From: Raphanus sativus | Taxonomy: Eukaryota > Streptophyta > Magnoliopsida > Brassicales > Brassicaceae | DNA length: 64,000 nucleotides | NCBI RefSeq assembly: GCF_000801105.2 | Contig: NC_079515.1 | Span: forward strand, 8,494,001 to 8,558,000 | Direction of reading: 5' to 3' | Notes under the pieces: model-generated | What the model was told of the DNA's origin: nothing | Seen by the model: only the letters and a program-made list of their open reading frames with translations | Database searches by the model: none | Translations under genes and position numbers: made by a program | Part shown: piece by piece, positions 10,979-45,967 of the stretch | How the letters are laid out: the number at the start of each line of letters is the position of its first letter | Numbering within the stretch: the stretch's first letter is position 1

Positions 10979-13900
10979 CCTCTGCGACATCATGGATGAT
11001 CTTGTAGGATTTGAGTCTCTGAAAAATTGAAGCTTGTTCCTGAGTTGTCGATCCAGAAGTTTGAATAGCTGGTCAGTTGATCTGAAGATCCGAGAATGAA
11101 GACGCGCGTTTCGTTCTCCCCAAATCCAGTACATCGTCGATTGCCATGCAAGGAGCGAGAGAAGCTTTTGGTGAAGCGGAGGGGGAAGGTTTATCATCTG
11201 ATCCAGAGTGTCTTGCCAGTTCCGATGAGGATGAAGACGGAGCATGTCTGCTACTTGTCTCCACAAATCGAAGTTGTAGTTACAGGAGAAGAAAAGATGA
11301 TCATGAGACTGCGGTTGTGCATTACAGAGCAAGCAGCGATCATCCCCTTGAATCCCCCACTGAAGAAGCCTGTCCCTTGTTGGGTTCCTGTTTTGAATTA
11401 CCAACCAAGTGTGGAAAGCGTGACGGGGAATACCTCTGGAGAACCAGACGACAGCGTGCCAAAGAACATCTTGCCTTTCCTCTGACAAGTAATCATAAAG
11501 AATACCCGTTTTGAAGGTTGTATATATTTGGCCATTAATCTCCCATTCATAGTAGTCATCAGCAGTTGTGAATTGAATGGTTGTTAGGTACACATACAGT
11601 TCCAGTTGAGCTTCTGATCGGGCTGGTGGAAGACTCCAAACACCATTCGGGCATAGCGAGGAGACAATAGCGTGTAGAGGTATACCCATTCTTGAGTTTG
11701 AGGCATTTAGATAGGTTCGAAGCTCACCATAAGGAGACCAATTGTCTGACCAGAATCTTGCCATTTCCCCATTTTGCAGCCTGAGCTTTAGTAGGGGAAA
11801 GACAACCTCTTTGAGTTTAAGCAGCTTATTTACCATCCAAGAGTAGGACTGTTTCGGTTTGGTGATCCAGTAGTTTTGCAGCGATCCATTAAGGATCACT
11901 TCTTTAAACCATTGTACCCACACATAGTCCGGTCTAAAGAAGAGAATCCATAACAGTCTGAGGGTGCAAGCTTTGTTCCAGGTATGAAGATCTTTTACTC
12001 CCAATCCTCCTTGCCTTTTTTCCAATATAACTGTCTCCCATGATAATCTCGCAGAATGATGACCTTCAAGACTGCCTTTCCATAGGAACATGCTGCAAAG
12101 GGAGTTGATTCTCTTGATACACGCTTTTGGCAAGATGAAAGCGGAGCACCAAAAGGTAGTTATGCCTGCAATTACTGTCTTGATGAGAAGTAACCTGCCT
12201 GAGAATGATAGCCTTTTATAGACCAAGAGGAGAGTCGACTTTTAACTTGATGGATGAGCGATTCACAGTTGGCAAGCGACAACTTCTTTGAGTTTAGAGG
12301 TACTCCCAAGTATCTGAATGGCAGTGAACCTAGAGACATTCCTGTGGAGACTTGAATCAGGTTAGTTTCCGCCTCTGATAATCCCGAAGCGAAAAAGCTT
12401 GTTTTCTGCATACTCACTGCTAGTCCAGACCTTAATTCAAACTCCTTTAATACTTGCAGGACATGCTGAACCGAATCCAGAGAGCCATCAATGAAGATCA
12501 GTAGGTCGTCCGCGAAAGAGAGGTGAGTAAGCTTTGTTGATGCACAGTTTGTATGATAGCTGAATCTTCTCTATCTTGCTGCTGTATTCAACATATGGGA
12601 TAGGCAATTCATAGCGATAATAAAAAGATAGGGTGATAGTGGATCTCCCTGTCTTAGTCCGCGTTTCCCTTTGAAATAACCATGCACGAGCCCACTGTAA
12701 CCAACCATGTAACTTGATGTACAGACACGCGCACGCAACTGCCTGATGAATCGGTTTGGGAGCTGAAGTCCTTCAAGGCAAGATAAGAGGAAGTCCCAAG
12801 AAAGTGTATCAAAAGCCTTGGATATATCCACTTTGATGGTAATCCTCTTCGGCCCTTTATTTTTATGATAACCATTGATAAGCTCTCCTGCTAGCATAGT
12901 GTTCTCCACCAGTAGACGACCTTTCACAAATGCTGTTTGGCTAGGCAAAACTAGAGAAGGCAAGATAGGTTTCAATCTCTTGACAAGTAGCCTAGAGATG
13001 ACCTTATAAATTGTATTGAGACAAGATATAGGTCTGAAATCACTAATCTTAGATGCTCCCGGGAATTTAGGCACTAACGTTAGTATTGTTGCGTTCACTG
13101 CAGATGGGAGGAAGTTGCTAGCAAATAAATTTCGCACTGCTGAGACAATCTCCCACCAGTTGTATCCCATGAAGCTTTAAAGAATGCTGAAGTTAACCCA
13201 TCCGGGCCTGGGGCCTTGTTTGGGTTTAGCTTAAAAAGTGTTGCCTTTATCTCCTCTGCAGTTGGGGTAAGTAGCATTTGCTGACTTAAGTGTTGCGGAA
13301 AAGAGTAATCAGTTAACTCTTGAAACCAAACAGGTTGAGTCAGTAGTCGATAGGAGTACTCCCTGAGGACAGATGCGAAGTGGTTCACCGTGTGGTCGCT
13401 CATTTCCATCGGATCAAGAATCCAAGTGCCATCAGATTTCATGAAGGCTCTTATGGCATTGTAGCTAGCTCTTGTGAGGCAGATGCGGAAGAAGTAAGTG
13501 GTGTTAAGATCCCCCTCTCTCAACCAGGTAATTCTTGATTTTTGCTTGTAGAACAGCTCCTCTATCTCCCTTAAGAAGTTCCACTTTTGATGCAGATCAC
13601 GTTCAGCCTGAAAGGTTACTTGATTTGGGTTCTGTAAAGCTTGTACCTGCGCATTTTTTAACAAACAGTTAGTCTCAGTAACCCTCTCTTGGATTTTTGA
13701 ATAATTTTCTTTATTTAAACCTTTAGGTCACTCTTGATTAGTTTCAATTTCCAGCAAAGTTGCGCAAGCGTTTGGCACACGTCTCCAGCCTGAATCCATG
13801 CATCATGTAGAAGCTGAGAGAACCCCGGGTGTTTAGTTAGGTAGTTTTGGAACTTGTAGGGTTGGGTACCAGCAGAGGGGAGAGTAAAGGCAAGGTCTAG

Positions 13901-14602
13901 GATACAGGGAGCATGGTCTGAGAACATGGGAGGATGAAAGGTGGCTATAGCATTGGGATAGCTTGTAACTAGAGAGCTGTTAACCAACAGTCTATCAAGT
14001 TTCTTTGAGATTGGAGTCACAGGCTGGCTGTTGGTCCAAGTATGAGAAGGGCCAATGAAGCGCAAATTAAACAGGCCAACCTGAGTCAAGCAATCGCGAA
14101 GCTGATACATTAGGTAGTCAAGTGAATTTACTGCAGGATCTGAGTGCTCAGAAGGATGGATGATTTGGTTAAGATCACCTCCCATGATCCAGCAGGTATC
14201 ATCAAGGATGACAGTAGATTGAAGATGAATGAGCTCAGTCCACAAGTCAATCCTTTCCGCTTCAAGGTTTGAGGCGTATACAACTGAGTAGTAGATAGGC
14301 GGTTGGTTAGGGAAATTGAGCTTACAGGTAATACACTGACGGCTTTGGGCAAGAACTTGGATATTTAGGGGGTCTTTCCAAATCCAAATGATGCGTCCCT
14401 CTGGGTCAGATAAATGATTGGACGTAAACTTCCAGTTGGGGCAAAGTGATGATAGAGTTGAGCTTAAAAGAGGTTGTTTGATATGTGTTTCGAGCAGTGC
14501 TCCAAAAAGTGGCTTATTTGTATTGAGCCAAGACAAAAAAGGTCTATGCTTAGCCGGGAGATTAATTCCACGGACATTCCAAAAAAAGAGTTTTACACTC
14601 AT
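10916..14602 (-). pseudogene. LINE ORF2: endonuclease and reverse transcriptase, disrupted
   Basis: The start ATG at 14602 overlaps the ORF1 stop as ATGA, the usual arrangement for coupled translation in plant LINEs. The first frame (14602-13715) is an APE-like endonuclease with FWNVRG, GGDLNQI and SDHAP motifs. The RT region follows in two further frames (13664-13095 and 13170-12571) with PNKAPGPDG, FRPISC, TAFVKGR, DISKAFD and GLRQGDPLSPYLF. The FADD catalytic motif lies near 12505-12517. The C-terminal frames (12417-12172 and 12226-10916) hold a zf-RVT domain. Frames change at about 13690, 13130 and 12200, and there is a stop at 12571, so no intact polyprotein can be made. The last 13 or so codons derive from the nested MITE. 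Confidence 0.9.
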
Positions 14603-15400
14603 TGAGAAGGTAAAAGAGGATCCTCTGAAGCAACTGGAGGACCACTACCTACTAAAACAGTCGAGAAAGAAGAGGGGGAAAAGGTTGGCTTAGAGCAGGA
14701 GATAGGGTCAGGTGGCTGGGCTTCTTGGGGGTTGAAAAGGGAGAGAGTTTGTGCAAAAGGGTTAGCATTTGAGGACACGGGAGGGGAAAGGGTTGGAGAC
14801 GAACGAGATCTCTTTAGAGAAGGACGAATAGGAGGCTCAGGAGTAAGGAAGGGATTGAAATTTGGTTTAGGGATAATTGCTACTTGAGCAGGGATCGAGT
14901 CAAGTGAGGGATTAGTGGGAACAGGGAGGGTGTGGTTAATCGGTGGGGTCACTGGAGGAAGAGGCAGGGAAGGCTGAGGATCAGATTGGGCTGGGGAAGT
15001 GGAGGGATTAGTATCAACCGATGCCTTTGATTAAGGGTTAACGGGTCGGTAGTGTTTGGTTTTCTTTAGTGGCTCTTTCTGTCTCAAAGGTTTCTTGACA
15101 GTGGAACTAGACTCTTCTGGGGGCGGGACATAAGAGAGACAGTTGCGCAAAATATGACCAAGCTTCTTACAATGTGAGCAGGTAGCAGGGACCCAAGGGT
15201 AATGCACTGATACCTCCACAACCTCACCACTCTGCCTCTCAAACTCAACAACAGGTGGGAGGGGTTTGTGAGATCTACCTCCACCTTAACATGCGAAAGG
15301 GTAAGGCTCACAAGATTTTTAGTAAACTCATCTGTTTCCTTTGGCTCTCCAATCAGTGACAGACGGCGGATTCAGGCCGGAGATGCGGCCAGAGATGCTC
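14599..15400 (-). pseudogene. LINE ORF1 (gag-like, zinc knuckle), disrupted
   Basis: Reading on the minus strand, about 15370-15270 encodes a segment resembling the end of a DUF4283-type gag domain. A one-base deletion near 15270 then shifts the frame. The restored frame contains a CCHC-like zinc knuckle (CSHCKKLGHILRNC) and a proline/serine-rich tail down to 14599. An in-frame TAA at 15033-15031 interrupts the tail. The tail stop overlaps the ORF2 start. The upstream DUF4283 core is not recognisable, which suggests 5' truncation or decay. Confidence 0.8.
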
Positions 15401-30723: not shown

Positions 30724-30980
30724 GAGCATCTCCAATGGCACTATTTTTTTCTCTATAATTTACATAAAAATAAAGTAATTCTATTATAGAGTAACTTTTG
30801 CTCCAATTGTTTACTCTATAGTAGAGTAACTCTATTATAGAGTGAAATGTAGAGGAATGTCACTTTTAATTCTATATTTGGAGTAGAAAAGTGAAGTTCC
30901 TCTATACTCTCACTTTATAATAGAGTAACTCTATCATAGAGTATACCATTGGAACAAAAATTACTTTATAATAGAATTAT
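30724..30980. mobile_element. Tourist-like MITE, left part (split by MULE)
   Basis: It starts gagcatctccaatgg after TTA at 30721-30723. Its other half lies at 45906-45967 and ends in the inverse, ccattggtgatgctt, followed by TTA at 45968-45970. A TTA duplication with these ends fits PIF/Harbinger-derived Tourist MITEs. The interior is full of self-complementary ctctattatagagt segments. Removing the MULE and one copy of its 9-bp duplication leaves an element of about 310 bp. Confidence 0.88.
30972..30980. repeat. MULE target-site duplication, left copy
   Basis: tagaattat, identical to 45906-45914. Nine bases is the standard duplication size for Mutator-like elements. Confidence 0.93.
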
Positions 30981-31499
30981 GGGCTTATTGCAAAAGTGAC
31001 TCAAAACTTGAATTCAAACAGAAAACTAACCTTTTCTTTTGACTCATTTTTTTTTTGAGTTTTTAACCCCACATCTGCATTTTATCTACGAAAATGCCAT
31101 TAACCCTTTTTTTTTTTTTTTTTTCGAAAATGGCTTCTTTACTGTCTCAACCTCATTTTCTTCAAGTATTTACAATATTGCCACTGCCATGAATAGTGGG
31201 AACAACCTTGTACGAACTGTTTGGAGCTTTTAATGCCCTTTAATGCACGTAAATCTCTTTACACTCTCTCTGTTTCAATTGTTATGAACTAAAAACAACA
31301 TTTCTTTCACTTTCTCTCCATATTCATCCAAAAAACTGAAGCTTTTGATTCAAAATTGTTTGGAGCCATATTTCTTTCGTTTTGACTTACGGTTGCTTTC
31401 GTTTGAGGTTCTGGGTGGTTGGAGAAGACCCTGTGTGCAAACAAAGTCATCTCACCTAGTTGAAGGTACGAATTTGAATTTTTTTCAAAATCTGTTCGC

Positions 31500-32340
31500 G
31501 TAGAAGACTTACAAGTAAGTCATCTGTATGTAGAAGACTTACTGATGAGTCTTCTGGTCAAACGGACGACTTAAACTAAGTCGTCCAGCTTTGTTTGGTG
31601 AAAAAAAACAGTCCAGACGACTTATATATAAGTCGTCTACGAGAAACAGGCTAGTTTTGCATTTGACCGAATCGTGTCAGATCTTTGACTATTTCTGGAC
31701 GACTTATAATTCAGTCGTCTCTCGGAAAGTTAAAATTTCAATATTTTATTAAACTAGACGACTTACGTGTAAGTCGTCTTAGGTTAGTTTTGTAGTTGAA
31801 AAATAAAACTTCATAATTTAATTTTTACCAGACGACATAATATAAAGTCGTCCCGTCAGAAGACTTAATTTAAAGTCGTCCGGGGAAAGCAAAGTCGTCC
31901 AGAATTTTTCCCAATTAAGTCGTCCAAACCTTGCTTATCCCGGACGACCTTAAATTAAGTCGTCTAGCTGGACGACTTTTAGTTAAGTCGTCTGGAGAAA
32001 GTTAAATTTCAAGTTTTATTTTTCAATTACAAAACTAACCTGGGACGACTTACGTGTAAGTCGTCTAGTTTGAATAAAATATTGAAATTTTTACTTTCCA
32101 GAGACGACTGATTTATAAGTCGTCCAGAAATAGTCAAAGATCTGACACGATTCGGTCAAATGCAAAACTAGCCCGTTTTTCGTAGACGACTTATATATAA
32201 GTCGTCTGAATTTTTTTTTTTAACAAACAAAGCCGGACGACTTAGAATTAAGTCGTCCCTTTTAATTTTCAATTGCAAAAGTGACCTCTTTAGACGACTT
32301 ACCTTTAAGTCTTCTGGACGACTTAAATCTAAGTCGTCTG
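31500..32340. repeat. Palindrome array upstream of the transposase
   Basis: I count about 16 palindromic units in 840 bp, at about 31504, 31541, 31564, 31614, 31697, 31756, 31830, 31857, 31943, 31968, 32042, 32101, 32182, 32234, 32292 and 32316. The consensus is GACGACTTA-N4-TAAGTCGTC. The outer bases are conserved, the four central bases vary, and the total span is almost always 22 bp. Confidence 0.93.
31564..32258. repeat. Long imperfect inverted repeat
   Basis: The left arm (about 31564-31830) and right arm (about 32000-32258) are inverted copies of about 260 bp separated by about 170 bp. Matching blocks in inverted order include agctttgttt/aaacaaagc, ggctagttttgcatttgacc/ggtcaaatgcaaaactagcc, agatctttgactatttctgg/ccagaaatagtcaaagatct and aggttagttttgtaattga-type sequence. 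Transcription through it would give a strong hairpin. Confidence 0.88.
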
Positions 32341-32409
32341 CGATAATGTTTGTTGAACTTCTTCATTTTCTCTATGTTTACTAATGTGTTTTATTTTGAA
32401 TATTTGCAG

Positions 32410-34833
32410 ATGATTTTTAAGTTACATGCAGTGTATGGAGAATGGTTGTTGAGAGATTTCCGTTGGGATTTTGTGGTTGATGATCTCAAAGGAGCAAGAT
32501 TGTTTTTATTGAATGAAGATTCAACACATGCTGAACTTGTTGCAATGGCTCAAGAAGATTATAACCTGGACATGAGATCAGTGACTGTGGAGATTAGCTA
32601 CTCATTACCAGCAGAAATGATGATGACTCCAAGCAGTCCTCCCATTCATGTTACAAGTGATAGACAAGTTCGAAACTTGCTCGAGATACTCAAAACGCAT
32701 AGAGTATGTCTTTGTGTATCAAGCCGCAGCAAGGTGGAAACGGTTTCAGAGAAAAGAGAAGAAGCTGGTGATAATGATGAAGCTGGTGAATGGGAAGAAG
32801 ATGTTGGTGATAATGATGAAGCTGGTGAATGGGAAGAAGATGTTGGTGATAATGATGAGGCTGATGAATGTTTTGAAGATGTTGGTGATAATGAGTCTGT
32901 TGAAGATGAAAATCAAGATGGGGAGGAGGAAAATGGGGAGGAGGAAAATGGGGAGGAGGATGCTGATAACACTATTGTTGGTGAAACGGATCAGAATGGT
33001 GGGGATTACAGTCTTTATGGAAAGGTTCTAGATGAGGACGAGGAAGATGATGATAATATTTGTTTTGAAGAAATTGAAAAGACATATGCTAAGACAAATG
33101 CTATTGAAGGAGGAAAATCGGATTGTACCAGCATCTATGTCAACCAGAGTTTTGTTAGCAAGGATGCACTGCTTTCAGAGCTGCGGTTGACAGCAGTGAG
33201 GGGTAGGTTTTCTTTCAGAATATACAAATCAACAAAAACTCTCCTTGTGGCAATATGTCGGGTTAGCGGTTGTGGATGGAAGATCAGAGCGAGTGTGAAA
33301 CATGGGTCAAACACGTTTTGGGTAACAAAGTATGTGGAAAAACATTTATGCTCAATTGGAGACCGAATCGCTCAGCGGAGACACTGTACTCCAAAGTATG
33401 TTGGTAGTCTTTTCATTGATCGTGTTGGGATCATTGATGGGATAACTCCACAGCATATCACTGATGCAATGAAGAACATGTTTGGCATGACGCTTGATTA
33501 CACCACTTCATACAGAGCACTGTTATATGCACAGAAATTGGTGAGAGGATCAGCAGAAGAAGGGTATTCGCGTCTGCCTTCATATCTCGAGCAAATCTCC
33601 ATTGCAAATCCTGATTCTATCACGGCTATAGAACTTGATTCTGAGAAAAGATTTAAGTATCTATTTCTCTCTTTTGGAGCTTCTATCAAAGGTTTTAAGT
33701 ATCAGAGAAGGGTCATTGTGGTGGATGGAACTCACCTAAGTGGAAAGTATGGAGGTGTTATGTTAGTTGCAGCCGCACAAGATGGCAATTTTCAGATATT
33801 CCCATTGGCTTTTGGGATCGTGGATGCTGAAGATGAACCTTCTTGGGAATGGTTTTTCACAAAATTGGCTAGTTGTATATCTCATGACAAGCCTCTGGTG
33901 ATAGTCTCTGACCGGCACGCGGCCATTAAAAGTGCGTGTGAGAAGGTGTTTCCTTGGGCAACCCGAGGAATATGTTATTATCACCTTCAAGATAACATTG
34001 TCAAAAAGTTTAAAGGGAAACATCTCATGTACTTGGTGAAAGGGGCTGCTTATGCGCACACGGTTCACGATTTTAACCGGTACATGGCTGAGATACGGAG
34101 TGCAAACCCGGAACTTGCAACGTATTTGGAGAAGGCCGACGCCAAGCTATGGTCAAGGGTTTATTGTAAGGGGAACAGGTTCAACATAAAAACAAGCAAC
34201 ATCGCTGAATCTATTAATTCCGCACTGAAGCGAGCAAGAGGATTTCCGATTCCGTTCCTGCTGGAGTTCATAAGGCAGAAGTTAGGAAAATGGTATTGGA
34301 AAAGGAGACAAGATGCTTTGAGTCTCCCAACTGTACATAGCCGGGGTGTTGAATACTTGCTTGCTGTTCGATCAGAGATAGCGGATACGATGACGGTCGA
34401 ACCAATTGATGGATGGCGTTTCTTTGTCAAAGGTGGCAAAATGGACTGTGCGGTTGATTTGGAACATGTAAAGTGTGGTTGTGGTGTCTATGGAGTGGAG
34501 AAAATACCTTGCTCTCATGCTATAGCAGCTGGAACACATGCTGGTGTGCATATCGACACACTTGTATGTCCACTTTACTCAAAGAATCATCTGTATGCAG
34601 GATACTCAGAGAATATATATCCTATCGTGTCACAACATATTGAGGAACGAGAATGCTTTCCTCCAAACGTAAAGCGTGGTCCGGGGAGACAGAAGAAATC
34701 AAGATGGCAATCTTGGTTGGAGCTATCTAGGATGAGGGGACACAAACCCAGGAAGAAACACAGGGCACGGAGATGCTCAAACTGCAAGGAAACTGGCCAT
34801 ACGAAACCACAATGTACACAACCAGTTGACTAG
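32410..34833 (+). CDS. MULE transposase (MURA type)
   Basis: An 807-aa reading frame without stops. I chose ATG 32410 because it directly follows an acceptor-like tatttgcag, although the open frame extends to 32350. This implies a 5' UTR intron. Order of parts: an N-terminal domain starting MIFKLHAVYGEW (about 1-110); an acidic linker with three 13-residue DNDEAGEWEEDVG-type repeats and three EENGE units; a MuDR-type N-terminal zinc-binding region (about 240-315, CRVSGCGWKIRA and CSIGDR); the MULE DDE domain with likely catalytic D439 (VVDGTH), D501 (VSDRHAAI) and E600 (NIAESIN), plus CYYHLQDN after the second aspartate; a SWIM zinc finger (CGC at about 689 with CSHA); and a C-terminal CCHC zinc knuckle (CSNCKETGHTKPQC). 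It should bind element ends and catalyse cut-and-paste transposition. All key residues seem intact. Confidence 0.93.
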   Translation: MIFKLHAVYGEWLLRDFRWDFVVDDLKGARLFLLNEDSTHAELVAMAQEDYNLDMRSVTVEISYSLPAEMMMTPSSPPIHVTSDRQVRNLLEILKTHRVCLCVSSRSKVETVSEKREEAGDNDEAGEWEEDVGDNDEAGEWEEDVGDNDEADECFEDVGDNESVEDENQDGEEENGEEENGEEDADNTIVGETDQNGGDYSLYGKVLDEDEEDDDNICFEEIEKTYAKTNAIEGGKSDCTSIYVNQSFVSKDALLSELRLTAVRGRFSFRIYKSTKTLLVAICRVSGCGWKIRASVKHGSNTFWVTKYVEKHLCSIGDRIAQRRHCTPKYVGSLFIDRVGIIDGITPQHITDAMKNMFGMTLDYTTSYRALLYAQKLVRGSAEEGYSRLPSYLEQISIANPDSITAIELDSEKRFKYLFLSFGASIKGFKYQRRVIVVDGTHLSGKYGGVMLVAAAQDGNFQIFPLAFGIVDAEDEPSWEWFFTKLASCISHDKPLVIVSDRHAAIKSACEKVFPWATRGICYYHLQDNIVKKFKGKHLMYLVKGAAYAHTVHDFNRYMAEIRSANPELATYLEKADAKLWSRVYCKGNRFNIKTSNIAESINSALKRARGFPIPFLLEFIRQKLGKWYWKRRQDALSLPTVHSRGVEYLLAVRSEIADTMTVEPIDGWRFFVKGGKMDCAVDLEHVKCGCGVYGVEKIPCSHAIAAGTHAGVHIDTLVCPLYSKNHLYAGYSENIYPIVSQHIEERECFPPNVKRGPGRQKKSRWQSWLELSRMRGHKPRKKHRARRCSNCKETGHTKPQCTQPVD

Positions 34834-34839
34834 TTGTCC

Positions 34840-35250
34840 AGACGACCTAAATATAAGTCGTCCAGTCTTGATTACCCGTCCAGACGACTAATTTCTAAGT
34901 CGTCCAGTGTTTCGTCTACCTTCTACGAAGTCGTCCAGTGTATTAGACTACCTTCTACTATCCCTTCAAGTGTATTTTTTTAGACGACCTTTTACGAAGT
35001 CGTCCAGTGTATTTAAGTCGTCCAGTGTATTTAAGTCGTCCAGTGTTTAGACTACCTTCTACTATCCCTTCAAGTGTATTTTTGTAAGTCGTCCAGCTGG
35101 AAAACCTTCCAGACGACTTATTTGTAAGTCGTCCAGCTGGAAAACCTTCCAGACGACTTATTTGTAAGTCGTCCAGCTGGAAAACCTTCCAGACGACTTA
35201 TTTGTAAGTCGTCCAGCTGGAAAACCTTCCAGACGACTTATTTGTAAGTT
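34840..35250. repeat. Palindrome array between the two convergent genes
   Basis: Units at about 34843 and 34883 have the 22-bp palindrome with ctaa variants. Half-site copies (aagtcgtccagtgt) follow. Positions 35081-35248 are about four tandem copies of a 40-bp unit combining agacgactta, tttgtaagtcgtcc, agctgg and aaaaccttcc. After 35250 come direct repeats of atctatacaagtta and caaatagatttgtgta types (to about 35465). Confidence 0.9.
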
Positions 35251-35467
35251 AGAAAATCTATACAAGTTAGAAAATCAAATAAATCATACATGCCCACAAA
35301 CATACAAATAGATTTGTGTAAACAAATAGTTCAAATATACAAATAGATTTGTGTATACAAATAGTTCAAATATACAAATTGATTTGTGTATCTATACAAG
35401 TTAAAAAATCTATACAAGTTAAAAAATCTATACAAGTTAAAAAATCTATACAAATTGATTTGTGTAT

Positions 35468-38400
35468 CTAATCATACATGCCTACAAACATACCACCATC
35501 CTCATTATCTTTCAGATGCTGATCAACAAGCTCCGTCCATATAGCCAAAGCCATAGTATCCCTCATAGTCTTCGCATTGGACCTAGCAAAGTCTTTAGGG
35601 CTAAAGGGGACCCCAAGAGCATGACATTCAATGTACTTTGCAGCGTACACGCCACAATCACCATTGTTGGCCGTGGGTACATCTTTGAGGAGTCTCTCAT
35701 AAGTGTATCGCTCCAACCCATGCATCTGGTCTCCGCACTCCACAATCAGATAAGGGACCATCTCGAGAAAAGGCTCCATTATCTCATCCCATCTTTCTGG
35801 TATGGTAGTTGAAGGTATGCTGTCCCAGACGACTATGTGCCTCTTAGGGATCGATATCCAAATAGCCACCCAATGTTTGTTGTCCAAGTTCAGTGGCGCA
35901 TAGATATCATCAATGTCCTCCCCCCACTTCTTGTTTGATTGGCAAAATGAAGGCATTGATCCGTCATACAAACTCGCCGCCCCACTAGGTAGCATTTTTC
36001 CTAAACCATTGTGATCAGACGACGATGTTTTGAAGACCAGATACTGTTCTCTCCAAGACTGGGTAAAGTTGTGATCCAGGAAGCACATTCGCTCGCTCCG
36101 GAAACATTGTGGGTTCTCCTTATACCTCTGCCTCAGCACATTCATCCAAGCATCTATATGCTGCATATAAAATAATACAAGTTAGAACCTTCCAGACGAC
36201 TTACAAATAAGTCGTCTGGAAGGTTTTCCAGCTGGACGACTTACAAATAAGTCGTCTGGAAGGTTTTCCAGCTCGAAAACCTTCCAGACGACTTATTTGT
36301 AAGTCGTCCAGCTGGAAAACCTTCCAGACGACTTATATATTTACAAATCTATACAAAGACAAGTTACCAGACGACTTATTTGTAAGTCTTCTGGAAGGTT
36401 TTCCAGCTGGACGACTTACAAATAAGTCGTCCAGCTGGAAAACCTTCCAGACGACTTATATATTTACAAATCTATACAAAGACAAGTTACCAGACGACTT
36501 AAAGATAAGCAGAAGACTTACTACGTCTTCCAGCCATGCTTTGGATGTCCGGAGTTTTTGATACCACCAAGTTGGTGATGTACGTGGTTTGTCCTCTTCC
36601 TTAGTGAAATAATCACTGCAAACAAAAAAGCAATCAGTTTTGGTAGACTAAATCAAGCTATTATGGGTAAAGCAATCACTTACGGATCAGTTTTCAACCA
36701 ATCAGCGAGCTCCTTCATCTTAGGTCTGTTTAGTGTGGGAAATGGATTATACTTTCCCACTCTAAGGAGTTTCCTTCTCTCTGCCGTATAAGGAGATATC
36801 TGCGTGGGAGCAGGTTTCTTCGTTCGTTCACTCCTTGCACGCACAGAAGCAGTGGGAGCTGTTTGGTCCAATACAACCAGGCTCGGTTCTGAAGCTGAAG
36901 CTGGATCGGTGGAAGCGAAGCTCGGTTGTTGATCGTTGGAAGCGAAGCTCGGTTGGTCAGTGGAAGTGAGAGGAACAATCTCTTTGGAGGTGACACCATC
37001 TGCTTTATCCTCCGGCAAGATCTTATATACCGAGATCGCCTCATCTGCTGTATCCTCCGGCAACAATCTCTGCAATAAAAGAGAACAAGTTAACCCTGGA
37101 CGACTTAAATAAAAGTTGGGAGAGGATTTGGTTCCAGCTGGAGTTCAGACGACTTATTTGTAAGTCTTCTGGAAGGTTTTCCAGCTGGACGACTTACAAA
37201 TAAGTCGTCTGGAAGGTTTTCCAGCTGGAAAACCTTCCAGACGACTTATTTGTAAGTCGTCCAGCTGGAAAACCTTCCAGACGACTTATATATTTACAAA
37301 TCTATACAAAGACCAGACGACTTAAAGATTTGATATTAACCTCTTTGGGCAGAGGAGAAGGCTGTTTCTTTTGTGGAGAAGGCTTTTTCGTTTGAGGAGC
37401 AGGCTGTTTCGTCTGAGGAGCAGGCTGTTTAGTTTGAGGAGCAGGCTGTTTCGTTTGAGGAGCAGGCTGTTTAGTTTGAGGAGCAGGCTGTTTAGTTTGA
37501 GGAGCAGGCTGTTTAGTTTGAGGAGTAGGCTTTGCCTTTTGAGGAGCAGGCTGTCTGGTGGGAGGAGTAGGATGATTGGTTTGAAGTGGAGGCTGATCCT
37601 TTTGAGGAGTAGTCTGTTTGTTACTAGCCCCGGTTTCTGGGGCTTGTGGGGTAGGGTGTTTTTTACTAACCCCGGTTTCTGGGGCTTGAGGGGTAGCCTG
37701 ATTGGTGACACCAACCTTCTTCTCCACAGCTTCCAATCTATCGGAGATCTTCCTAATCTCCCTGATGCACTTCTTAAACCCCTCTTTCATCATGTCACCT
37801 AAGTCCTTGAACATGTTTTCTAACTCCTCTCTGGTCACCCAACTAGCCTCTTCTCTAGCCTCTTCTGTAGCCTCTTCTGTAGCCTCTGTAGGAGCCTCTT
37901 CTCTAGCCTCTTTAGGAGCCTCTTTAGGAGCCTCTTTACGAGCTTTCTTCCGAGGTCTCTGATTGTCTTCCTCCACCTCCTCCACAACCATCTCTTTGGC
38001 TCTTTTCGATGGAGTCACAAACTTGGGTTTTGTACCAGTGACTTCCCAGCAATCCATGGTCCACTTCCACGGTCTCCGATCATACATCACTTTAATGATG
38101 TTCTCCGCGGGCACGTCATCAACCTCAGAGTCCCATTTTGGCCACATTTCACTAATGTCCTTCTCAACAAAGTTGATCACGCGGGTCTGCAGTAAATAGA
38201 AGAAGAATCGAGTTAGATATTTGAAACAAAATACTAAATAGACGACTTAATTATAAGTCGTCAACTAAGTCGTCCAGCTGGACGACCTTCCAGACGACTT
38301 ATTATAAGTCGTCTACTAAGTCGTCCAGCTGGACGACCTTCCAGACGACTTATAATAAGTCGTCTACTAAGTCGTCCAGCTGGAAGACCTTCCAGACGAC

Positions 38401-39771
38401 TTATAATAAGTCGTCTACTAAGTCGTCCAGCTGGAAGACCTTCCAGACGACTTATAATAAGTCGTCTACTAAGTCGTCCAGCTGGAAGACCTTCCAGACG
38501 ACTTATAATAAGTCGTCTACTAAGTCGTCCAGCTGGAAGACCTTCCAGACGACTTATAATAAGTCGTCTACTAAGTCGTCCAGCTGGAAGACCTTCCGGA
38601 CGACTTAATTAAGTGAAGATGGAAAGGTACCTGACTCAAGATAGCAGCTTTCATGAATCTGCGGCCTCTGCTGCCGTCGTAAGCCAGAATCGGTGGAGAC
38701 GGACTGTTTGCTCTGGGTAGACCAATACTAGCACCCAATCCCGGAATAGCTTCGTACGCCCAGACCTGAAGAACTTGTATAAAGCCATCCACGGTGTAAC
38801 AGCCAGTAATATCTTTGTTCCACAAAGAGTCCATCAGCACCTTAAACGCGACTCTCCCCCATGGATAATTCTCAAACCTTTCTAAATCCATCACTAGCCT
38901 TGCGAGAGTAGCTCGTGTAGCGCTTGAGAACTTTTTCCCTTCAATGAATCCAGTGAAGATGGAAAGGTACGCGAGTCGCTTGCGATCTTCCCTGGACCAA
39001 TCCCCGCATCTCTTCAGTGCTGCTATTATCTGATCAGTACTTGGCCCAGCTTCCCGATGAACTCCCATCATCTCCCAGAAAGAAACCATCTGTGGGGTAA
39101 CTTCACATTCTGGTGTCTCAAGGTCCTCGATGTAGTCGCAGTTTAGACCAGTGATGTTTTCAAACTCTAACAGTGAAAACCTCGCAGGTTCTGGACCAAC
39201 GAGACACCACATCTCGTACTTCTTCTTAATGTCCAGCTTTAAACCGAGCAAGTGGTGAACCAGCCTTGAAGCCCAACCAAATCCCTGCTCCTTGAACTTG
39301 ATGAAAACTCCCAATCTCGACTCCTTGAGCTCTTCAAATTCAGCATCAGTGAGAGCTTCCCTAAGAGCAGTATGCAACTTCGTGTTATCCGTATGATACG
39401 AAATGCTATTGTGGGGTTCTGGCTCTTCCCCTAATGTGTATAACCTACGGGGGAGTTCTGGAATATCCATCCTTTTTGTCTGCAAAATAATCAAAGACAA
39501 CAATAGAAGTCAGAACACAAGCTAAATCAATCACGCCTTAATTGTTACTCCAGACGACTTAGTAGACGACTTAAATATAAGTCGTCTAGAAAGTCGTCCA
39601 ACTGGACGACTTAGTTGACGACTTATATTTAAGTCGTCTGGAAAGTCTTCCAAATGGACGTACTAAGTCGTCCAGGTTGAAGACTTTCCAGACGACTTAC
39701 TTACAAGTCTTCCAGTAGAAAAATTTCAAGCGGACCTGATTAGTCGCAGAAGGAGTTCGAGTACTCGTCAT
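35468..39771 (-). CDS. DUF1985-Ulp1 (C48) protease-like protein of the MULE
   Basis: Six coding exons on the minus strand, 39771-39736, 39479-38631, 38186-37341, 37069-36684, 36615-36522 and 36160-35468, join in frame to 967 aa. Exon 2 (residues about 13-295) matches the DUF1985 family seen in plant transposon Ulp1-like genes (LGVFIKFKEQGFGWASRLVH, WCLVGPEPARFSLLEFENIT). Exon 3 is charged (EAPKEA-type repeats), then predicted coiled/heptad-like around residues 415-440, then proline/glutamine-rich with about eight PAPQTKQ units. The last exon is a Ulp1/C48 cysteine-peptidase domain with candidate catalytic H833 (NKHW), D850 (VWDS) and C906 (NGDCG), so it may be an active SUMO-type protease. 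DUF1985 links it to VANC-like anti-silencing proteins of VANDAL MULEs. All introns except the 68-bp fourth carry the element palindrome. The short first exon is inferred from splice sites. Confidence 0.82.
36185..36515. repeat. Palindrome array in intron 5 of the Ulp1-like gene
   Basis: Alternating 22-bp palindromes gacgacttacaaataagtcg-type and their 40-bp composite with agctgg/ccagct and aaccttcc/ggaaggtt. The array changes orientation several times, so it can fold into long stems. The sequence atatttacaaatctatacaaagacaagttaccag is present twice in part (about 36338 and 36459). Confidence 0.9.
37085..37330. repeat. Palindrome array in intron 3 of the Ulp1-like gene
   Basis: Same composite units as intron 5, in both orientations, immediately after the exon 4 acceptor and up to the exon 3 donor. 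Coding exons on either side lack the motif. Confidence 0.88.
38240..38605. repeat. 51-bp tandem palindrome array in intron 2
   Basis: About six tandem copies with an exact 51-bp period (cagacgacttataataag at 38342, 38393, 38444 and on). Each unit holds a 21-bp palindrome (gacgactta-taa-shifted), a third half-site, then cagctgg and aagaccttc. The leftmost copies have gacgacc instead of gaagacc. High identity between units suggests recent amplification. Confidence 0.93.
39545..39720. repeat. Palindrome cluster in intron 1 of the Ulp1-like gene
   Basis: Units at about 39567 and 39620 have gacgactta-aata/tatt-taagtcgtc geometry, with flanking half-sites. Intron 1 has a weak donor (GTCCGC) but keeps the frame. 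Confidence 0.85.
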
Positions 39772-39786
39772 TGTGGTTATAGATCT

Positions 39787-40330
39787 GAAAAAATAAACGT
39801 GAAACGGTGAGAATGAGTAAATTGAAAGAGACAACGTTTTATGTTCATCTTTTCCACGAGTTTGATGACTTACCGGCGTTAGGGTTTACAGAGAAACGGC
39901 GCTACGGTTTACAGAGAAGAAGCGGCGGCGCTAGGGTTTAGAAGAAGCGGCGGCGCTAGGGTTTAGAAGAAACGGCGGTGCTAGCTAGTGTTTAGAGTAA
40001 GCGGCGGTGAGAACGTTGGTGAGCACGGTGGCGAGGGCGACGGTTTGTTCGGAAATAGTGGAAGCGGGGGCGCTAGGGTTTAGAGGAATCGGCGGCGCTA
40101 GGGTTAGAAGAAGCTGCGGCGACAACGGTGAGAATGAAGTGAGATAGATAGCCGACGTTGAGAACGATGGTTGTTCGGAAATAGTGGGAATTCGAATCGC
40201 CTTTGATATCGCCGGTGAGAGAGAACTGTTAGGGTTTCTGTTCGCGGAAAATGAAAAAAAAAAAAAAAAATCACCTTATATATTGGGTAAATAATCCGGT
40301 TAGCTTTAAAGTACATTGGTAAACTTTAAG
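39787..40330 (-). promoter_or_regulatory. 5' UTR intron and leader of the Ulp1-like gene
   Basis: On the minus strand a donor GTAAGT at about 39874 and an acceptor TTTTTTCAG at about 39787 define an 88-bp leader intron just before the start codon. Upstream lies a leader of about 380 bp with several direct repeats of gcggcggcgctagggttta type (about 39900-40110), unusually GC-rich for the window. Palindromes recur at about 40345-40430 and 40808-40872, next to the element's right end. Confidence 0.55.
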
Positions 40331-41033
40331 GTTTGGTCCGGTTTAGACGACTTATTCTGGCTGATAATGTACATCAGACGACCTAATATTTAGTCGTCTG
40401 GGAACAGAAGACTAAATATTAAGTCGTCCAATACCCTAAAATGAACCCCTAAACTAAAATGACTAAATTAACTTACTAACCACGTTATAAAATCAAATTA
40501 TACTTCAATAGTGTTTACTATACACAGAAACGAACACGCCTAGGTAATTTTAAAAATTTTCAAAAACGGTTTTAATGCTTTCCAAAATCTAACCCTAAGA
40601 ACACATACAATACTACAACATATGTTGATGAAACATAAACTAAAGAATATCATGACTCACTACTTTCACTCATCTGGGCTGAAAACAATTGAAATTTGTT
40701 ATATATTAATTTATATCTCTTAAGACATATGTTAATTACATAATTCCAATTTTTCACTTATCAAAATATTTTTTACAAAATTTTTAAATTATGTTTAAGA
40801 ATAACTGTCCAGACGACTTAACTTAAAGTCGTCTGGACGACTTATTTTCAAGTCGTCTGTTTACAGACGACTTGCGAGGGGTAGAAACGTAAAAAAAAAT
40901 CCGTTTTTTTGTTTGTTCACAAGGAGATAGTTGTAATTTCAATAGCCTTTTAAGTTACTTTTGCCTTTGACCCAAGTTGGGGTACTCTTTTGGGTTTGAC
41001 TCCAAGTTTTGAGTCACAATTGGTAATTCTCCC

Positions 41034-41133
41034 NNNNNNNNNNNNNNNNNNNNNNNNNNNNNNNNNNNNNNNNNNNNNNNNNNNNNNNNNNNNNNNNNNN
41101 NNNNNNNNNNNNNNNNNNNNNNNNNNNNNNNNN
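41034..41133. other. Assembly gap, 100 N
   Basis: Exactly 100 unknown bases, the usual placeholder for a gap of unknown size. The sequence before it ends precisely at the MULE's terminal ccc. The sequence after it restarts inside intron 5 of the Ulp1-like gene. Confidence 0.99.
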
Positions 41134-44100
41134 GTCGTCTGGAAGGTTTTCCAGCTCGAATACCTTCCAGACGACTTATTTGTAAGTCGTCCAGCTGGAA
41201 AACCTTCCAGACGACTTATATATTTAAAATCTATACAAAGACAAGTTACCAGACACTTATTTGTAAGTCTTCTGGAAGGTTTTCCAGCTGGACGACTTAC
41301 AAATAAGTCGTCCAGCGGGAAAACCTTCGCAGACGACTTATATATATTTACAAAATCTATACAAAGACAAGTTACCAGACGACTTAAAGATAGCAGAAGA
41401 CTTACTACGTCTTCCAGCCATGCTTTGGATGTCCGGAGTTTTTGATACCACAAGTTGGTGATGTACGTGGTTTGTCCTCTTCCTTAGTGAATAATCATGC
41501 AAACAAAAAGCAATCAGTTTTTTGGTAGACTAAATTCAAGCTATTATGGGTAAAGCAATCACTTACGGATCAGTTTCAACCAATCAGCGAGCTCCTTCAT
41601 CTTAGGTCTGTTTAGTGTGGGAAATGGATTTACTTTTCCCACTCTAAAGAGTTTTCCTTCTCTCTGCCGTATAAGGAGATATCTGCGTGGGAGCAGGTTT
41701 CTTTCGTTCGTTCACTCCTTGCACGCACAGAAGCAGTGGGAGCTGTTTGGTCCAATAACCAGGCTCGGTTCTGAAGCTGAAGCTGGATCGGTGGAAGCGA
41801 AGCTCGGTTGTTGATCGTTGGAAGCGAAGCTCGGTTGGTCAGTGGAAGTGAGAGGAACAATCTCTTTGGAGGTGACACCATCTGCTTATCCTCCGGCAAG
41901 ATCTTATATACCGAGATCGCCTCATCTGCTGTATCCTCCGGCAACAATCTCTGCAATAAAAGAGAACAAAGTTAACCCTGGACGACTTAAATAAAAGTTG
42001 GGAGAGGATTTGGTTCCAGCTGGAGTTCAGACGACTTATTTGTAAGTCTTCTGGAAGGTTTTCCAGCTGGACGACTTACAAATAAGTCGTCTGGAAGGTG
42101 TTTCCAGCTGGAAAACCTTCCAGACGACTTATTTGTAAGTCGTCCAGCTGGAAAACCTTCCAGACGACTTATTATTTACAAATCTATACAAAGACCAGAC
42201 GACTTAAAGATTTGATATTAACCTCTTTGGGCAGAGGAAAGGCTGTTTCTTTTGTGGAGAAGGCTTTTTCGTTTGAGGAGCAGGCTGTTTCGTCTGAGGA
42301 GCAGGCTGTTTAGTTTGAGAGCAGGCTGTTTCGTTTGAGGAGCAGGCTGTTTAGTTTGAGGAGCAGGCTGTTTAGTTTGAGGAGCAGGCTGTTTAGTTTT
42401 GGAGTAGGCTTTGCCTTTTGAGGAGCAGGCTGTCTGGTGGGAGGAGTAGGATGATTGGTTTGAAGTGGAGGCTGATCCTTTTGAGGAGTAGTCTGTTTTT
42501 ACTAGCCCCGGTTTCTGGGGCTTGTGGGGTAGGGTGTTTTTTACTAACCCGGTTTCTGGGGCTTGAGGGGTAGCCTGATTGGTGACACCAACCTCTTCTC
42601 CACAGCTTCCAATCTATCGGAGATCTTCCTAATCTCCCTGATGCACTTCTTAAACCCCTCTTTCATCATGTCACCTAAGTCCTTGAACATGTTTTCTAAC
42701 TCCTCTCTGGTCACCCAACTAGCCTCTTCTCTAGCCTCTTCTGTAGCCTCTTCTGTAGCCTCTGTAGGGAGCCTCTTCTCTAGCCTCTTTAGGAGCCTCT
42801 TTAGGAGCCTCTTTACGAGCTTTCTTCCGAGGTCTCTGATTGTCTTTCCACCTCCTCCACAACCATCTCTTTGCTCTTTTCGATGGAGTCACAAACTTGG
42901 GTTTTGTACCGTGACTTCCCAGCAATCCATGGTCCACTTCCACGGTCTCCGATCATACATCACTTTAAATTTTCTCCGCGGCACGTCATCAACCTCAGAG
43001 TCCCATTTTGGCCACATTTCACTAATGTCCTTCTCAACAAAGTTGATCACGCGGGTCTGCAGTAAATAGAAGAAGAATCGAGTTAGATATTTGAAACAAA
43101 ATACTAAATAGACGACTTAATTATAAGTCGTCAACTAAGTCGTCCAGCTGGACGACCTTCCAGACGACTTATTATAAGTCGTCTACTAAGTCGTCCAGCT
43201 GGACGACCTTCCAGACGACTTATAATAAGTCGTCTACTAAGTCGTCCAGCTGGAAGACCTTCAGAGACGACTTATAATAAGTCGTCTACTAAGTCGTCCA
43301 GCTGGAAGACCTTCCAGACGACTTATAATAAGTCGTCTACTAAGTCGTCCAGCTGGAAGACCTTCCAGACGACTTTATAATAAGTCGTCTACTAAGTCGT
43401 CCAGCTGGAAGACCTTCCAGACGACTTATAATAAGTCGTCTACTAAGTCGTCCAGCTGGAAGACCTTCCGGACGACTTAATTAAGTGAAGATGGAAAGGT
43501 ACCTGACTCAAGATAGCAGCTTTCATGAATCTGCGGCCTCTGCTGCCGTCGTAAGCCAGAATCGGTGGAGACGGACTGTTTGCTCTGGGTAGACCAATAC
43601 TAGCACCCAATCCCGGAATAGCTTCGTACGCCCAGACCTGAAGAACTTGTATAAAGCCATCCACGGTGTAACAGCCAGTAATATCTTTGTTCCACAAAGA
43701 GTCCATCAGCACCTTAAACGCGACTCTCCCCCATGGATAATTCTCAAACCTTTCTAAATCCATCACTAGCCTTGCGAGAGTAGCTCGTGTAGCGCTTGAG
43801 AACTTTTTCCCTTCAATGAATCCAGTGAAGATGGAAAGGTACGCGAGTCGCTTGCGATCTTCCCTGGACCAATCCCCGCATCTCTTCAGTGCTGCTATTA
43901 TCTGATCAGTACTTGGCCCAGCTTCCCGATGAACTCCCATCATCTCCCAGAAAGAAACCATCTGTGGGGTAACTTCACATTCTGGTGTCTCAAGGTCCTC
44001 GATGTAGTCGCAGTTTAGACCAGTGATGTTTTCAAACTCTAACAGTGAAAACCTCGCAGGTTCTGGACCAACGAGACACCACATCTCGTACTTCTTCTTA

Positions 44101-45905
44101 ATGTCCAGCTTTAAACCGAGCAAGTGGTGAACCAGCCTTGAAGCCCAACCAAATCCCTGCTCCTTGAACTTGATGAAAACTCCCAATCTCGACTCCTTGA
44201 GCTCTTCAAATTCAGCATCAGTGAGAGCTTCCCTAAGAGCAGTATGCAACTTCGTGTTATCCGTATGATACGAAATGCTATTGTGGGGTTCTGGCTCTTC
44301 CCCTAATGTGTATAACCTACGGGGGAGTTCTGGAATATCCATCCTTTTTGTCTGCAAAATAATCAAAGACAACAATAGAAGTCAGAACACAAGCTAAATC
44401 AATCACGCCTTAATTGTTACTCCAGACGACTTAGTAGACGACTTAAATATAAGTCGTCTAGAAAGTCGTCCAACTGGACGACTTAGTTGACGACTTATAT
44501 TTAAGTCGTCTGGAAAGTCTTCCAAATGGACGTACTAAGTCGTCCAGGTTGAAGACTTTCCAGACGACTTACTTACAAGTCTTCCAGTAGAAAAATTTCA
44601 AGCGGACCTGATTAGTCGCAGAAGGAGTTCGAGTACTCGTCATTGTGGTTATAGATCTGAAAAAATAAACGTGAAACGGTGAGAATGAGTAAATTGAAAG
44701 AGACAACGTTTTATGTTCATCTTTTCCACGAGTTTGATGACTTACCGGCGTTAGGGTTTACAGAGAAACGGCGCTACGGTTTACAGAGAAGAAGCGGCGG
44801 CGCTAGGGTTTAGAAGAAGCGGCGGCGCTAGGGTTTAGAAGAAACGGCGGTGCTAGCTAGTGTTTAGAGTAAGCGGCGGTGAGAACGTTGGTGAGCACGG
44901 TGGCGAGGGCGACGGTTTGTTCGGAAATAGTGGAAGCGGGGGCGCTAGGGTTTAGAGGAATCGGCGGCGCTAGGGTTAGAAGAAGCTGCGGCGACAACGG
45001 TGAGAATGAAGTGAGATAGATAGCCGACGTTGAGAACGATGGTTGTTCGGAAATAGTGGGAATTCGAATCGCCTTTGATATCGCCGGTGAGAGAGAACTG
45101 TTAGGGTTTCTGTTCGCGGAAAATGAAAAAAAAAAAAAAAATCACCTTATATATTGGGTAAATAATCCGGTTAGCTTTAAAAGTACATTGGTAAACTTTA
45201 AGGTTTGGTCCGGTTTAGACGACTTATTCTGGCTGATAATGTACATCAGACGACCTAATATTTAGTCGTCTGGGAACAGAAGACTAAATATTAAGTCGTC
45301 CAATACCCTAAAATGAACCCCTAAACTAAAATGACTAAATTAACTTACTAACCACGTTATAAAATCAAATTATACTTCAATAGTGTTTACTATACACAGA
45401 AACGAACACGCCTAGGTAATTTTAAAAATTTTCAAAAACGGTTTTAATGCTTTCCAAAATCTAACCCTAAGAACACATACAATACTACAACATATGTTGA
45501 TGAAACATAAACTAAAGAATATCATGACTCACTACTTTCACTCATCTGGGCTGAAAACAATTGAAATTTGTTATATATTAATTTATATCTCTTAAGACAT
45601 ATGTTAATTACATAATTCCAATTTTTCACTTATCAAAATATTTTTTACAAAATTTTTAAATTATGTTTAAGAATAACTGTCCAGACGACTTAACTTAAAG
45701 TCGTCTGGACGACTTATTTTCAAGTCGTCTGTTTACAGACGACTTGCGAGGGGTAGAAACGTAAAAAAAAATCCGTTTTTTTGTTTGTTCACAAGGAGAT
45801 AGTTGTAATTTCAATAGCCTTTTAAGTTACTTTTGCCTTTGACCCAAGTTGGGGTACTCTTTTGGGTTTGACTCCAAGTTTTGAGTCACAATTGGTAATT
45901 CTCCC
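41134..45905. repeat. Second copy of 36251-41033, probably a false duplication
   Basis: The offset is 4883 bp at the start and 4872 bp from about 43.4 kb on. The first 2.2 kb differ from copy 1 by many scattered one- or two-base indels, for example ccaccaag to ccacaag and ccttcttctcc to cctcttctcc. The rest is essentially identical apart from homopolymer changes. It ends at the MULE terminus, followed by the 9-bp duplication. Confidence 0.93.
41400..44643 (-). pseudogene. Partial second copy of the DUF1985-Ulp1 gene
   Basis: Exons 1 and 2 (44643-44608 and 44351-43503) are identical to copy 1. Exons 3-5 (about 43058 to 41400) carry numerous frameshifting indels. The final exon with the Ulp1 domain is absent because the copy starts in intron 5. 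If the duplication is an assembly artefact, this gene does not exist as a separate locus. Confidence 0.85.
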
Positions 45906-45967
45906 TAGAATTATTCTATTTTTATATAAATTATAGAAGAAAATATAGTGTGCCATTGGTGATGCTT
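45906..45967. mobile_element. Tourist-like MITE, right part
   Basis: Continues the MITE interrupted at 30980. It includes the right copy of the MULE duplication (tagaattat, 45906-45914). It ends ccattggtgatgctt before TTA (45968-45970). Its inverse matches the left arm at 30724 onward. Confidence 0.88.

What the first reader, a model, noticed from the sequence alone, without database searches (positions are those of the whole stretch)
30981..45905. Candidate self-recognition (anti-silencing) system in a MULE: a DUF1985-Ulp1 protein plus a dense element-specific palindrome
Seen: the element carries an intact-looking transposase, an intact-looking DUF1985-Ulp1 gene, and a palindrome GACGACTTA-N4-TAAGTCGTC repeated through leader, spacer, introns and both subterminal zones. 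The palindrome is essentially absent from coding exons. Known: in Arabidopsis VANDAL MULEs, VANC proteins (a DUF1985-containing family, as I recall) bind short element-specific motifs clustered in non-coding DNA and cause loss of DNA methylation. Inference: this element may encode its own motif-reading factor, here fused to a SUMO-protease-like domain that could remove SUMO from silencing factors. The motif sequence differs from the VANC21 motif I recall, so this would be a new protein-motif pair.
Basis: partly seen in the sequence, partly recalled or inferred. Interest (0 to 1): 0.93.

Follow-up and report, generated by a model that had tools for sequence, protein, structure and literature searches.

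The report
Radish jumping gene with anti-silencing kit
A plant jumping gene, probably from radish, carries a protein related to known transposon anti-silencing proteins together with about a hundred copies of a short DNA tag, mostly in mirror-image pairs and found only in its non-coding parts, which looks like a new example of a known self-recognition system with an unusual tag arrangement.

Summary
Window 30981-41033 is one ~10.05-kb VANDAL-like MULE with a 9-bp target-site duplication, a transposase ORF and a DUF1985-Ulp1 gene whose six predicted exons give an intact 967-aa frame. Half-sites GACGACTTA/TAAGTCGTC occur 112 times (≤1 mismatch), all in 4,689 bp of non-coding DNA, none in 5,364 bp of exons; 39 inverted pairs have 3-4 bp spacers. 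The stretch 41134-45905 repeats 36251-41033 behind a 100-N gap, probably an assembly duplication, so counts over the given interval are inflated. The DUF1985 exon matches Pfam DUF1985 and, by sequence, the solved protein VANC21. Closest listed proteins are from Raphanus and Brassica. Best explanation: a VANC-type sequence-specific anti-silencing pair; binding and demethylation were not tested. The kind is known: VANC21 and VANC6 with their motifs are published, and a review reports Ulp1-bearing VANCs (KIU) recognising their own motifs. What differs from the published motifs I could read is the inverted pairing with a CpG in each half-site. Arms of the palindromes mutate independently, which argues for half-site DNA recognition, not hairpins. 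A deSUMOylation role is unsupported. The genome-wide motif census could not be run.

The parts
30972..30980 (.). left target-site duplication TAGAATTAT
   Evidence: identical 9 bp at 45906-45914
30981..41033 (.). one complete VANDAL-like MULE, 10,053 bp, ends GGG...CCC, degenerate terminal repeats with GTGACTCAAAACTTG near both ends
31503..32373 (+). leader upstream of the transposase ORF with 32 half-sites; most of it is a long inverted repeat (about 31555-32275, arms 87% identical)
32374..34833 (+). transposase ORF (VANA-like), 819 aa: DBD_Tnp_Mut, MULE, Transposase_mut, SWIM; no half-site
34834..35467 (.). spacer between the two convergent genes, 16 half-sites, 40-bp tandem array 35081-35249
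39736..39771 (-). VANC/KIU-like gene, predicted exon 1 (12 codons; absent from the two homologue models compared)
39480..39735 (-). predicted intron 1, 9 half-sites
38631..39479 (-). exon 2, DUF1985 domain; no half-site
38187..38630 (-). intron 2, 22 half-sites in a 51-bp tandem array (7.4 copies)
37341..38186 (-). exon 3, with a conserved heptad-like segment (matched at E up to 1e-3 in 98 of 120 listed homologues) and a PAPQTKQ-type peptide repeat
37070..37340 (-). intron 3, 9 half-sites
36684..37069 (-). exon 4
36616..36683 (-). intron 4, 68 bp, no half-site
36522..36615 (-). exon 5
36161..36521 (-). intron 5, 14 half-sites
35468..36160 (-). exon 6, Peptidase_C48 (Ulp1-like), His-Asp-Cys present, no Gln at the usual oxyanion position
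39772..40900 (.). upstream of the VANC/KIU gene and right subterminal zone, 10 half-sites
41034..41133 (.). 100-N assembly gap
41134..45905 (.). second copy of 36251-41033: 13 substitutions and 41 gap columns in 4,798 columns, only 3 single-base indels beyond 43300; probable assembly duplication
45906..45914 (.). right target-site duplication TAGAATTAT

Best explanation
This is a VANDAL-type MULE of the Ulp1-bearing (KIU) sort, in a Brassiceae genome, most likely Raphanus. Its DUF1985-Ulp1 protein most likely binds the element's own short motif (core AGTCGTCY, mostly set as inverted pairs with 3-4 bp between them) in the leader, spacer, introns and subterminal zone, and from there causes loss of DNA methylation along the element so that both genes are expressed. 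Shown here: the two open frames, the domains, the motif, its confinement to non-coding DNA and its density. Inferred from relatives: binding and demethylation. Inferred with less support: that the protein binds as a dimer, helped by the heptad-like segment in exon 3. What the Ulp1 domain does is unknown.
For: DUF1985 2.7e-27 and sequence match of the same exon to solved VANC21 at 5.8e-6. Intact 967-aa predicted frame with GT..AG at all five introns. 0 of 112 half-sites in the 53% of the element that is coding, 8.9-49.5 per kb in seven non-coding zones. The same half-site recurs in differing contexts: over 30 hand-picked palindromes the spacer columns carry 0.05-0.44 bits and flanking columns at most 0.37, except three bases beside each half-site at 0.56-0.81, against 0.60-2.53 in the half-sites (the half-site figure is raised by how palindromes were picked). 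Many half-sites lie in tandem arrays of 18-52 bp units, the form reported for VANC targets (PMC5735166). The VANC21 motif and the two VANC6 motifs occur 0, 1 and 0 times, as expected of a separate specificity. Transposase 99% identical to a Raphanus sativus protein whose cluster has 30 member sequences, which fits a recently active family. Some homologue gene models contain peptides that the palindrome would encode: one pattern in 4 of 120, another in 6 of 120, shuffle means 0 and 0.1.
Against: No binding or methylation data. No genome-wide motif count (genome search did not complete). The profile of alignment A1 listed only SENP1 and SENP5 chains among solved structures at E up to 0.01, not VANC21. 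The predicted DUF1985 model was poor (mean pLDDT 48.7) and its fold search had no match at E up to 0.001. DUF287, shown in the paper for VANC proteins, was not reported for exons 2, 3, 4 and 6 (exons 1 and 5 not scanned, and I did not check that the library holds that model). VANC21 sites are arrayed in one orientation, these mostly in inverted pairs. Of the five peptide patterns tried in homologues, three gave 0 of 120; four of the six hits of one pattern come from near-identical proteins, and part of the rest is ordinary coding sequence.
Confidence: 0.72

Rival explanations
1. The palindrome is the binding site of the element's own transposase, an internal and subterminal array that helps transposition or its regulation, and the DUF1985 protein does something else.
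For: The transposase has a DNA-binding domain (DBD_Tnp_Mut); palindromes lie in both subterminal zones. Other transposon proteins lower methylation of their own elements: the EMBO Reports discussion names Spm TnpA and MuDR MURA (PMC10398659).
Against: No half-site in the outer 522 bp on the left or 133 bp on the right; the right subterminal zone is the sparsest of the seven (8.9 per kb), introns 2 and 5 the densest (49.5 and 38.8).
Confidence: 0.13
2. The repeats are neutral: slippage and inverted duplication amplified a short sequence, and selection only keeps it out of exons.
For: Many copies are near-identical tandem units, and the leader is one long inverted repeat with 87% identical arms; half-site and other columns differ little between those arms (91% v 85% identical, Fisher p 0.13).
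Against: The same half-site and mostly the same 4-bp spacing recur in zones with different flanks and spacers. In the 30 picked palindromes five of the outer six left-arm bases never vary, while the spacer is nearly free.
Confidence: 0.08
3. The palindromes act in RNA: hairpins or a long double-stranded leader that feed or escape small-RNA silencing.
For: The 871-nt leader folds at -520 kcal/mol against -190 for 20 shuffles, z -39; the long inverted repeat is real.
Against: In 38 of 47 palindromes, changed positions were one arm only in 24, the same change in both arms in 1, and different changes in both arms in 2, so pairing is not kept; youth of the copies would also leave one-sided changes. 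Whether the inverted repeat is transcribed is not known.
Confidence: 0.05
4. The protein is brought to the motif and its Ulp1 domain removes SUMO from silencing factors there (the first reader's mechanism; it would add to the best explanation, not replace it).
Against: The oxyanion Gln of Ulp1 (position recalled) is not Gln here: Thr by counting back from Cys, Ala by the gapped alignment; in the homologue alignment that column is Gln in 43 of 91 covered rows. A review judges KIU proteins unlikely to act on SUMO (PMC6117577). VANC21 and VANC6 demethylate, and the word ULP does not occur in the main text that describes them (PMC5735166).
Confidence: 0.12

Closest known systems
VANDAL21 (Hiun) with VANC21 (PMC5735166, parts 1-3 of 6 and passages read)
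   Same: Transposase gene plus DUF1985 protein; element-specific short motif, dense in introns, intergenic and terminal non-coding DNA, mainly outside exons; tandem repeats; sequence match of the DUF1985 exon to VANC21
   Different: Motif YAGTATTAY in one orientation, without CpG; DUF287 shown there, here a C48 domain; VANB present there, no third gene recognised here
VANDAL6/8 with VANC6 (PMC5735166)
   Same: Motif AGTTGTCC/AGTTGTAC; the first is one base from the core AGTCGTCC found here (7 of 8; shuffles reach this in 4.7%)
   Different: Tandem motif, no inverted pairing described; no Ulp1 domain mentioned
KIU (Kaonashi) Ulp1-bearing VANC genes (Sasaki 2022 not held; known here from passages of PMC13317346; that VANC1 of VANDAL1 is such a gene is recalled)
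   Same: MULE-borne gene with VANC-type part and C48 domain; the review says such elements recognise specific motifs in non-coding DNA
   Different: Their motif was not in any text I could read, so it may or may not be a palindrome
Yeast Ulp1 / human SENP SUMO proteases
   Same: Fold of the C-terminal domain (predicted model) and the His-Asp-Cys triad
   Different: Oxyanion Gln missing; substrate unknown

Membership tests
VANDAL-type MULE | MULE (MuDR-like) transposase gene | tested here: met
   MULE 4.4e-23, DBD_Tnp_Mut, Transposase_mut, SWIM
VANDAL-type MULE | degenerate terminal inverted repeats (PMC10398659); 9-bp target-site duplication (recalled for MULEs) | tested here: met
   the last 60 bases share GGG, GTGACTCAAAACTTG and scattered bases; TAGAATTAT on both sides
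VANDAL-type MULE | third gene VANB, as in VANDAL21 | tested here: inconclusive
   no other ORF of 100 aa or more that I could assign, but VANB was not searched for by sequence and it is not settled that all VANDALs have it
VANC protein | DUF1985 domain | tested here: met
   PF09331 2.7e-27; VANC21 chain 9lnj 5.8e-6
VANC protein | DUF287 domain, shown beside DUF1985 in the paper | tested here: inconclusive
   not reported for exons 2, 3, 4, 6; exons 1 and 5 not scanned, presence of the model in the library not checked
VANC protein | element-specific motif, dense and non-coding, in tandem repeats | tested here: met
   specificity tested only within this window
VANC protein | motifs in one orientation (reported for VANC21; not known to define all VANCs) | tested here: not met
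   39 of 55 forward and 39 of 57 reverse half-sites form inverted pairs
VANC protein | binds the motif and lowers DNA methylation | not testable with these tools
   needs binding assay and methylome
KIU (Kaonashi ULP-like) | MULE-borne gene with Peptidase_C48 domain | tested here: met
   PF02902 9e-34 in the same predicted spliced frame as DUF1985; P0001 and P0002 hold both domains
KIU (Kaonashi ULP-like) | close sequence kinship to Arabidopsis KIU genes | not tested
   no Arabidopsis KIU sequence was compared
active ULP/SENP deSUMOylase | His-Asp-Cys triad | tested here: met
active ULP/SENP deSUMOylase | oxyanion-hole Gln (recalled) | tested here: not met
   Thr or Ala there, depending on the alignment

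The most novel reading that the evidence does not exclude
A VANC-type protein that reads its element as a homodimer on inverted pairs of a VANC-like half-site, each half-site with one CpG, so that binding could depend on the methylation state it removes; the palindrome would be a new target architecture for this family.
Probability: 0.3. Interest if true: 0.6.

Novelty: new member of a known kind. Interest (0 to 1): 0.38.

Why it matters
VANC proteins are sequence-specific anti-silencing factors whose authors suggest using them to set epigenetic states at chosen loci (PMC5735166). A further protein with a very clear target motif, from a radish/Brassica lineage with many relatives and with a solved relative (VANC21, 9lnj), would make the protein-motif co-evolution directly testable: which residues set the specificity, and how a directly repeated site became an inverted pair. 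It also gives a case in which the role of the Ulp1 domain can be tested.

Tried and rejected
Genome-wide motif count: the genome search on the own genome with the palindrome was sent 15 times and never answered.

Other collections as a rough background: exact palindrome in 3 stretches of viral contigs, one place each, and in 1 stretch of the bacterial and archaeal genomes, none followed up; a transposase search in viral contigs found no relative among 413 stretches.

Structure of the DUF1985 exon: low confidence, no usable match.

RNA hairpin reading of the palindromes: set low because the arms change independently; the long inverted repeat in the leader remains unexplained.

Reading 30981-45905 as one 14.9-kb element: rejected; the right third is a duplicate. 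Both copies being real is not excluded; the second would then be a broken copy, exon 3 being split between frames.

Methylation decay: of 95 GA[xx]ACTTA sites 86 keep CG, 7 have AG and 2 TG; compatible with low methylation, youth or selection, so not used.

Peptides of the palindrome in homologue gene models: five patterns were tried on 120 proteins; hits in 4, 6, 0, 0 and 0. A looser count gave 40 hits in 6,420 residues not aligned to the query against a shuffle mean of 6.9 (largest 15) and 41 in 79,384 aligned residues, but 11 of the 40 come from one array and several are ordinary coding 'DDL'. Kept as suggestive only.

Similarity to the VANC21 motif: not above shuffles (0.90).

Full report
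Observation. The palindrome occurs 51 times in the window with up to 3 mismatches, against 0.02 expected from shuffles. All exact half-sites (69 and 65) fall inside the given interval. A count of all 9-mers, both strands together, puts GACGACTTA first in the element's non-coding DNA with 86 copies, 0 in coding DNA and 0 in the rest of the window.

The element. The left end is at 30981 and the right end at 45905, flanked by TAGAATTAT on both sides; the same right end also occurs at 41033, directly before a 100-N gap. The stretch 41134-45905 aligns with 36251-41033 with 13 substitutions and 41 gap columns in 4,798 columns, 98.9% identity; only 3 of the differences, all single-base indels, lie beyond 43300. 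In the first alignment, which began 8 bases too early, 29 of 49 gap columns sat beside the same base. I read this as two overlapping contigs not merged, so one element of 10,053 bp is present. This is an inference; long reads would decide.

Genes. The transposase is one ORF, 32374-34833, 819 aa, with the expected Pfam domains. On the other strand, six exons splice to 2,904 nt with no internal stop; all five introns start GT and end AG. Exon 2 holds DUF1985, exon 6 the C48 protease domain. The model was made by eye from ORFs and splice signals, without transcripts. Of two homologue models looked at, P0001 has the exact 2/3, 4/5 and 5/6 junction peptides and P0002 the 2/3 one and close forms of 3/4 and 5/6; neither has exon 1, both start at a Met in exon 2. 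So exon 1 and intron 1 are the weakest part of the model.

Relatives. The DUF1985-Ulp1 protein has 246 matches among 7,992 candidates scored (a capped set); 120 were listed, with names from Brassica, Raphanus, Sinapis and Eutrema; the best is Raphanus sativus, 92% identity over 40% of the query in the best local alignment. The transposase has 195 matches among 7,990 candidates, 120 listed; the best is 99% identical over 99% to a Raphanus sativus protein whose cluster has 30 member sequences. The host is therefore probably Raphanus (inference). Flanking genes include a sugar transporter and a RING-finger gene.

VANC kinship. The DUF1985 exon matches solved VANC21 (9lnj, 9lnk) at 5.8e-6 over residues 81-249. 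A profile of 56 aligned proteins listed 6 chains at E up to 0.01, all SENP1 or SENP5, and not VANC21. A structure prediction of the exon was too poor to use. So kinship rests on Pfam and on one sequence match.

Where the motif lies. With up to 1 mismatch the non-redundant element has 112 half-sites: leader 32, spacer 16, intron 5 14, intron 3 9, intron 2 22, intron 1 9, upstream/right subterminal 10; none in any exon, in the 68-bp intron 4, or in the outer ends. If half-sites fell evenly, none of 112 in the 53% that is coding would have probability 8e-38; tandem copies are not independent, so the true figure is larger, but seven separate zones agree.

How the motif is built. Of the half-sites, 39 of 55 and 39 of 57 form inverted pairs with 3 or 4 bp between them: 32 pairs at 4 and 7 at 3. 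A looser list has 47 palindromes. In 30 of these, picked by hand by dropping 15 array copies or truncated sites and two with 3-bp spacers, bases 1, 2, 4, 5 and 6 of the left arm are invariant, base 3 is A in 4 of 30, the inner TTA varies, the spacer is nearly free and three outer bases are partly fixed. The palindromes were found by likeness to the consensus, so the fixed half-sites are partly by construction; the free spacer is not. In 38 of the 47 (six 3-bp array units and three truncated sites dropped), changed positions were one arm only 24, both arms alike 1, both arms different 2. This fits recognition of each half-site in DNA and not maintenance of a hairpin. Each half-site has one CpG, and the palindrome has no CHG in its fixed bases.

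Likeness to published motifs. Hosaka and others give YAGTATTAY for VANC21 and AGTTGTCC/AGTTGTAC for VANC6 (PMC5735166). The half-site here reads TAAGTCGTC followed by T or C in 109 of 112, so AGTCGTCC is one base from the VANC6 motif. Shuffled consensus sequences do as well in 4.7% (VANC6) and 90% (VANC21) of trials. It is a lead, found after the fact.

Prior art. A 2026 review (PMC13317346, passages) says that VANC genes with a captured Ulp1 domain (KIU) direct hypomethylation of KIU-carrying VANDALs through specific motifs, citing Sasaki 2022, which was not held. A meeting report mentions an unpublished VANC21 crystal structure (PMC8756742, passage). Ten paper searches were made. The one for a palindrome with VANDAL and MULE listed one paper (PMC6446971), and the one for DUF1985 with Ulp1 listed twelve, of which I opened PMC13317346 and PMC5735166; those for VANC21 with crystal structure and VANDAL/DUF1985/Brassica listed none. 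No listing that I saw names this motif, but unopened papers and the many papers not held may.

Verdict. A real, strong pattern and a good candidate, but a further member of a described kind. The inverted pairing is the part that may be new.

Noticed in passing
31503-32373: Most of the leader is one long inverted repeat (arms about 355 bp, 87% identical; RNA fold -520 kcal/mol, z -39). If transcribed it would be a small-RNA source, which would sit oddly with an anti-silencing element.
   Followed up: partly
41034-45905: 100-N gap followed by a second, first indel-rich then near-identical copy of the element's right part; the first copy stops exactly at the element end. Probable unmerged contig overlap.
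   Followed up: yes
37352-37619: 21-bp coding repeat (12.8 copies) in exon 3 giving a PAPQTKQ-type peptide array; variable peptide arrays are also described for VANC proteins (PMC5735166).
   Followed up: no
32757-32960: Coding repeats (39-bp and 15-bp units) that give an acidic stretch in the transposase N-terminal part.
   Followed up: no
10916-14644: LINE-like remains on the minus strand: zf-RVT and endonuclease domains in separate frames.
   Followed up: no
P0077, P0090, P0012, P0026, P0096, P0020, P0080: Brassica gene models of relatives appear to run through introns or leaders that carry palindrome-like sequence, seen as peptides such as DDLHVSRP in P0026 and P0096.
   Followed up: partly
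P0011, P0023, P0091: P0011 matches DUF1985 in five stretches, and P0023 and P0091 hold the heptad-like segment twice, perhaps fused neighbouring copies.
   Followed up: no
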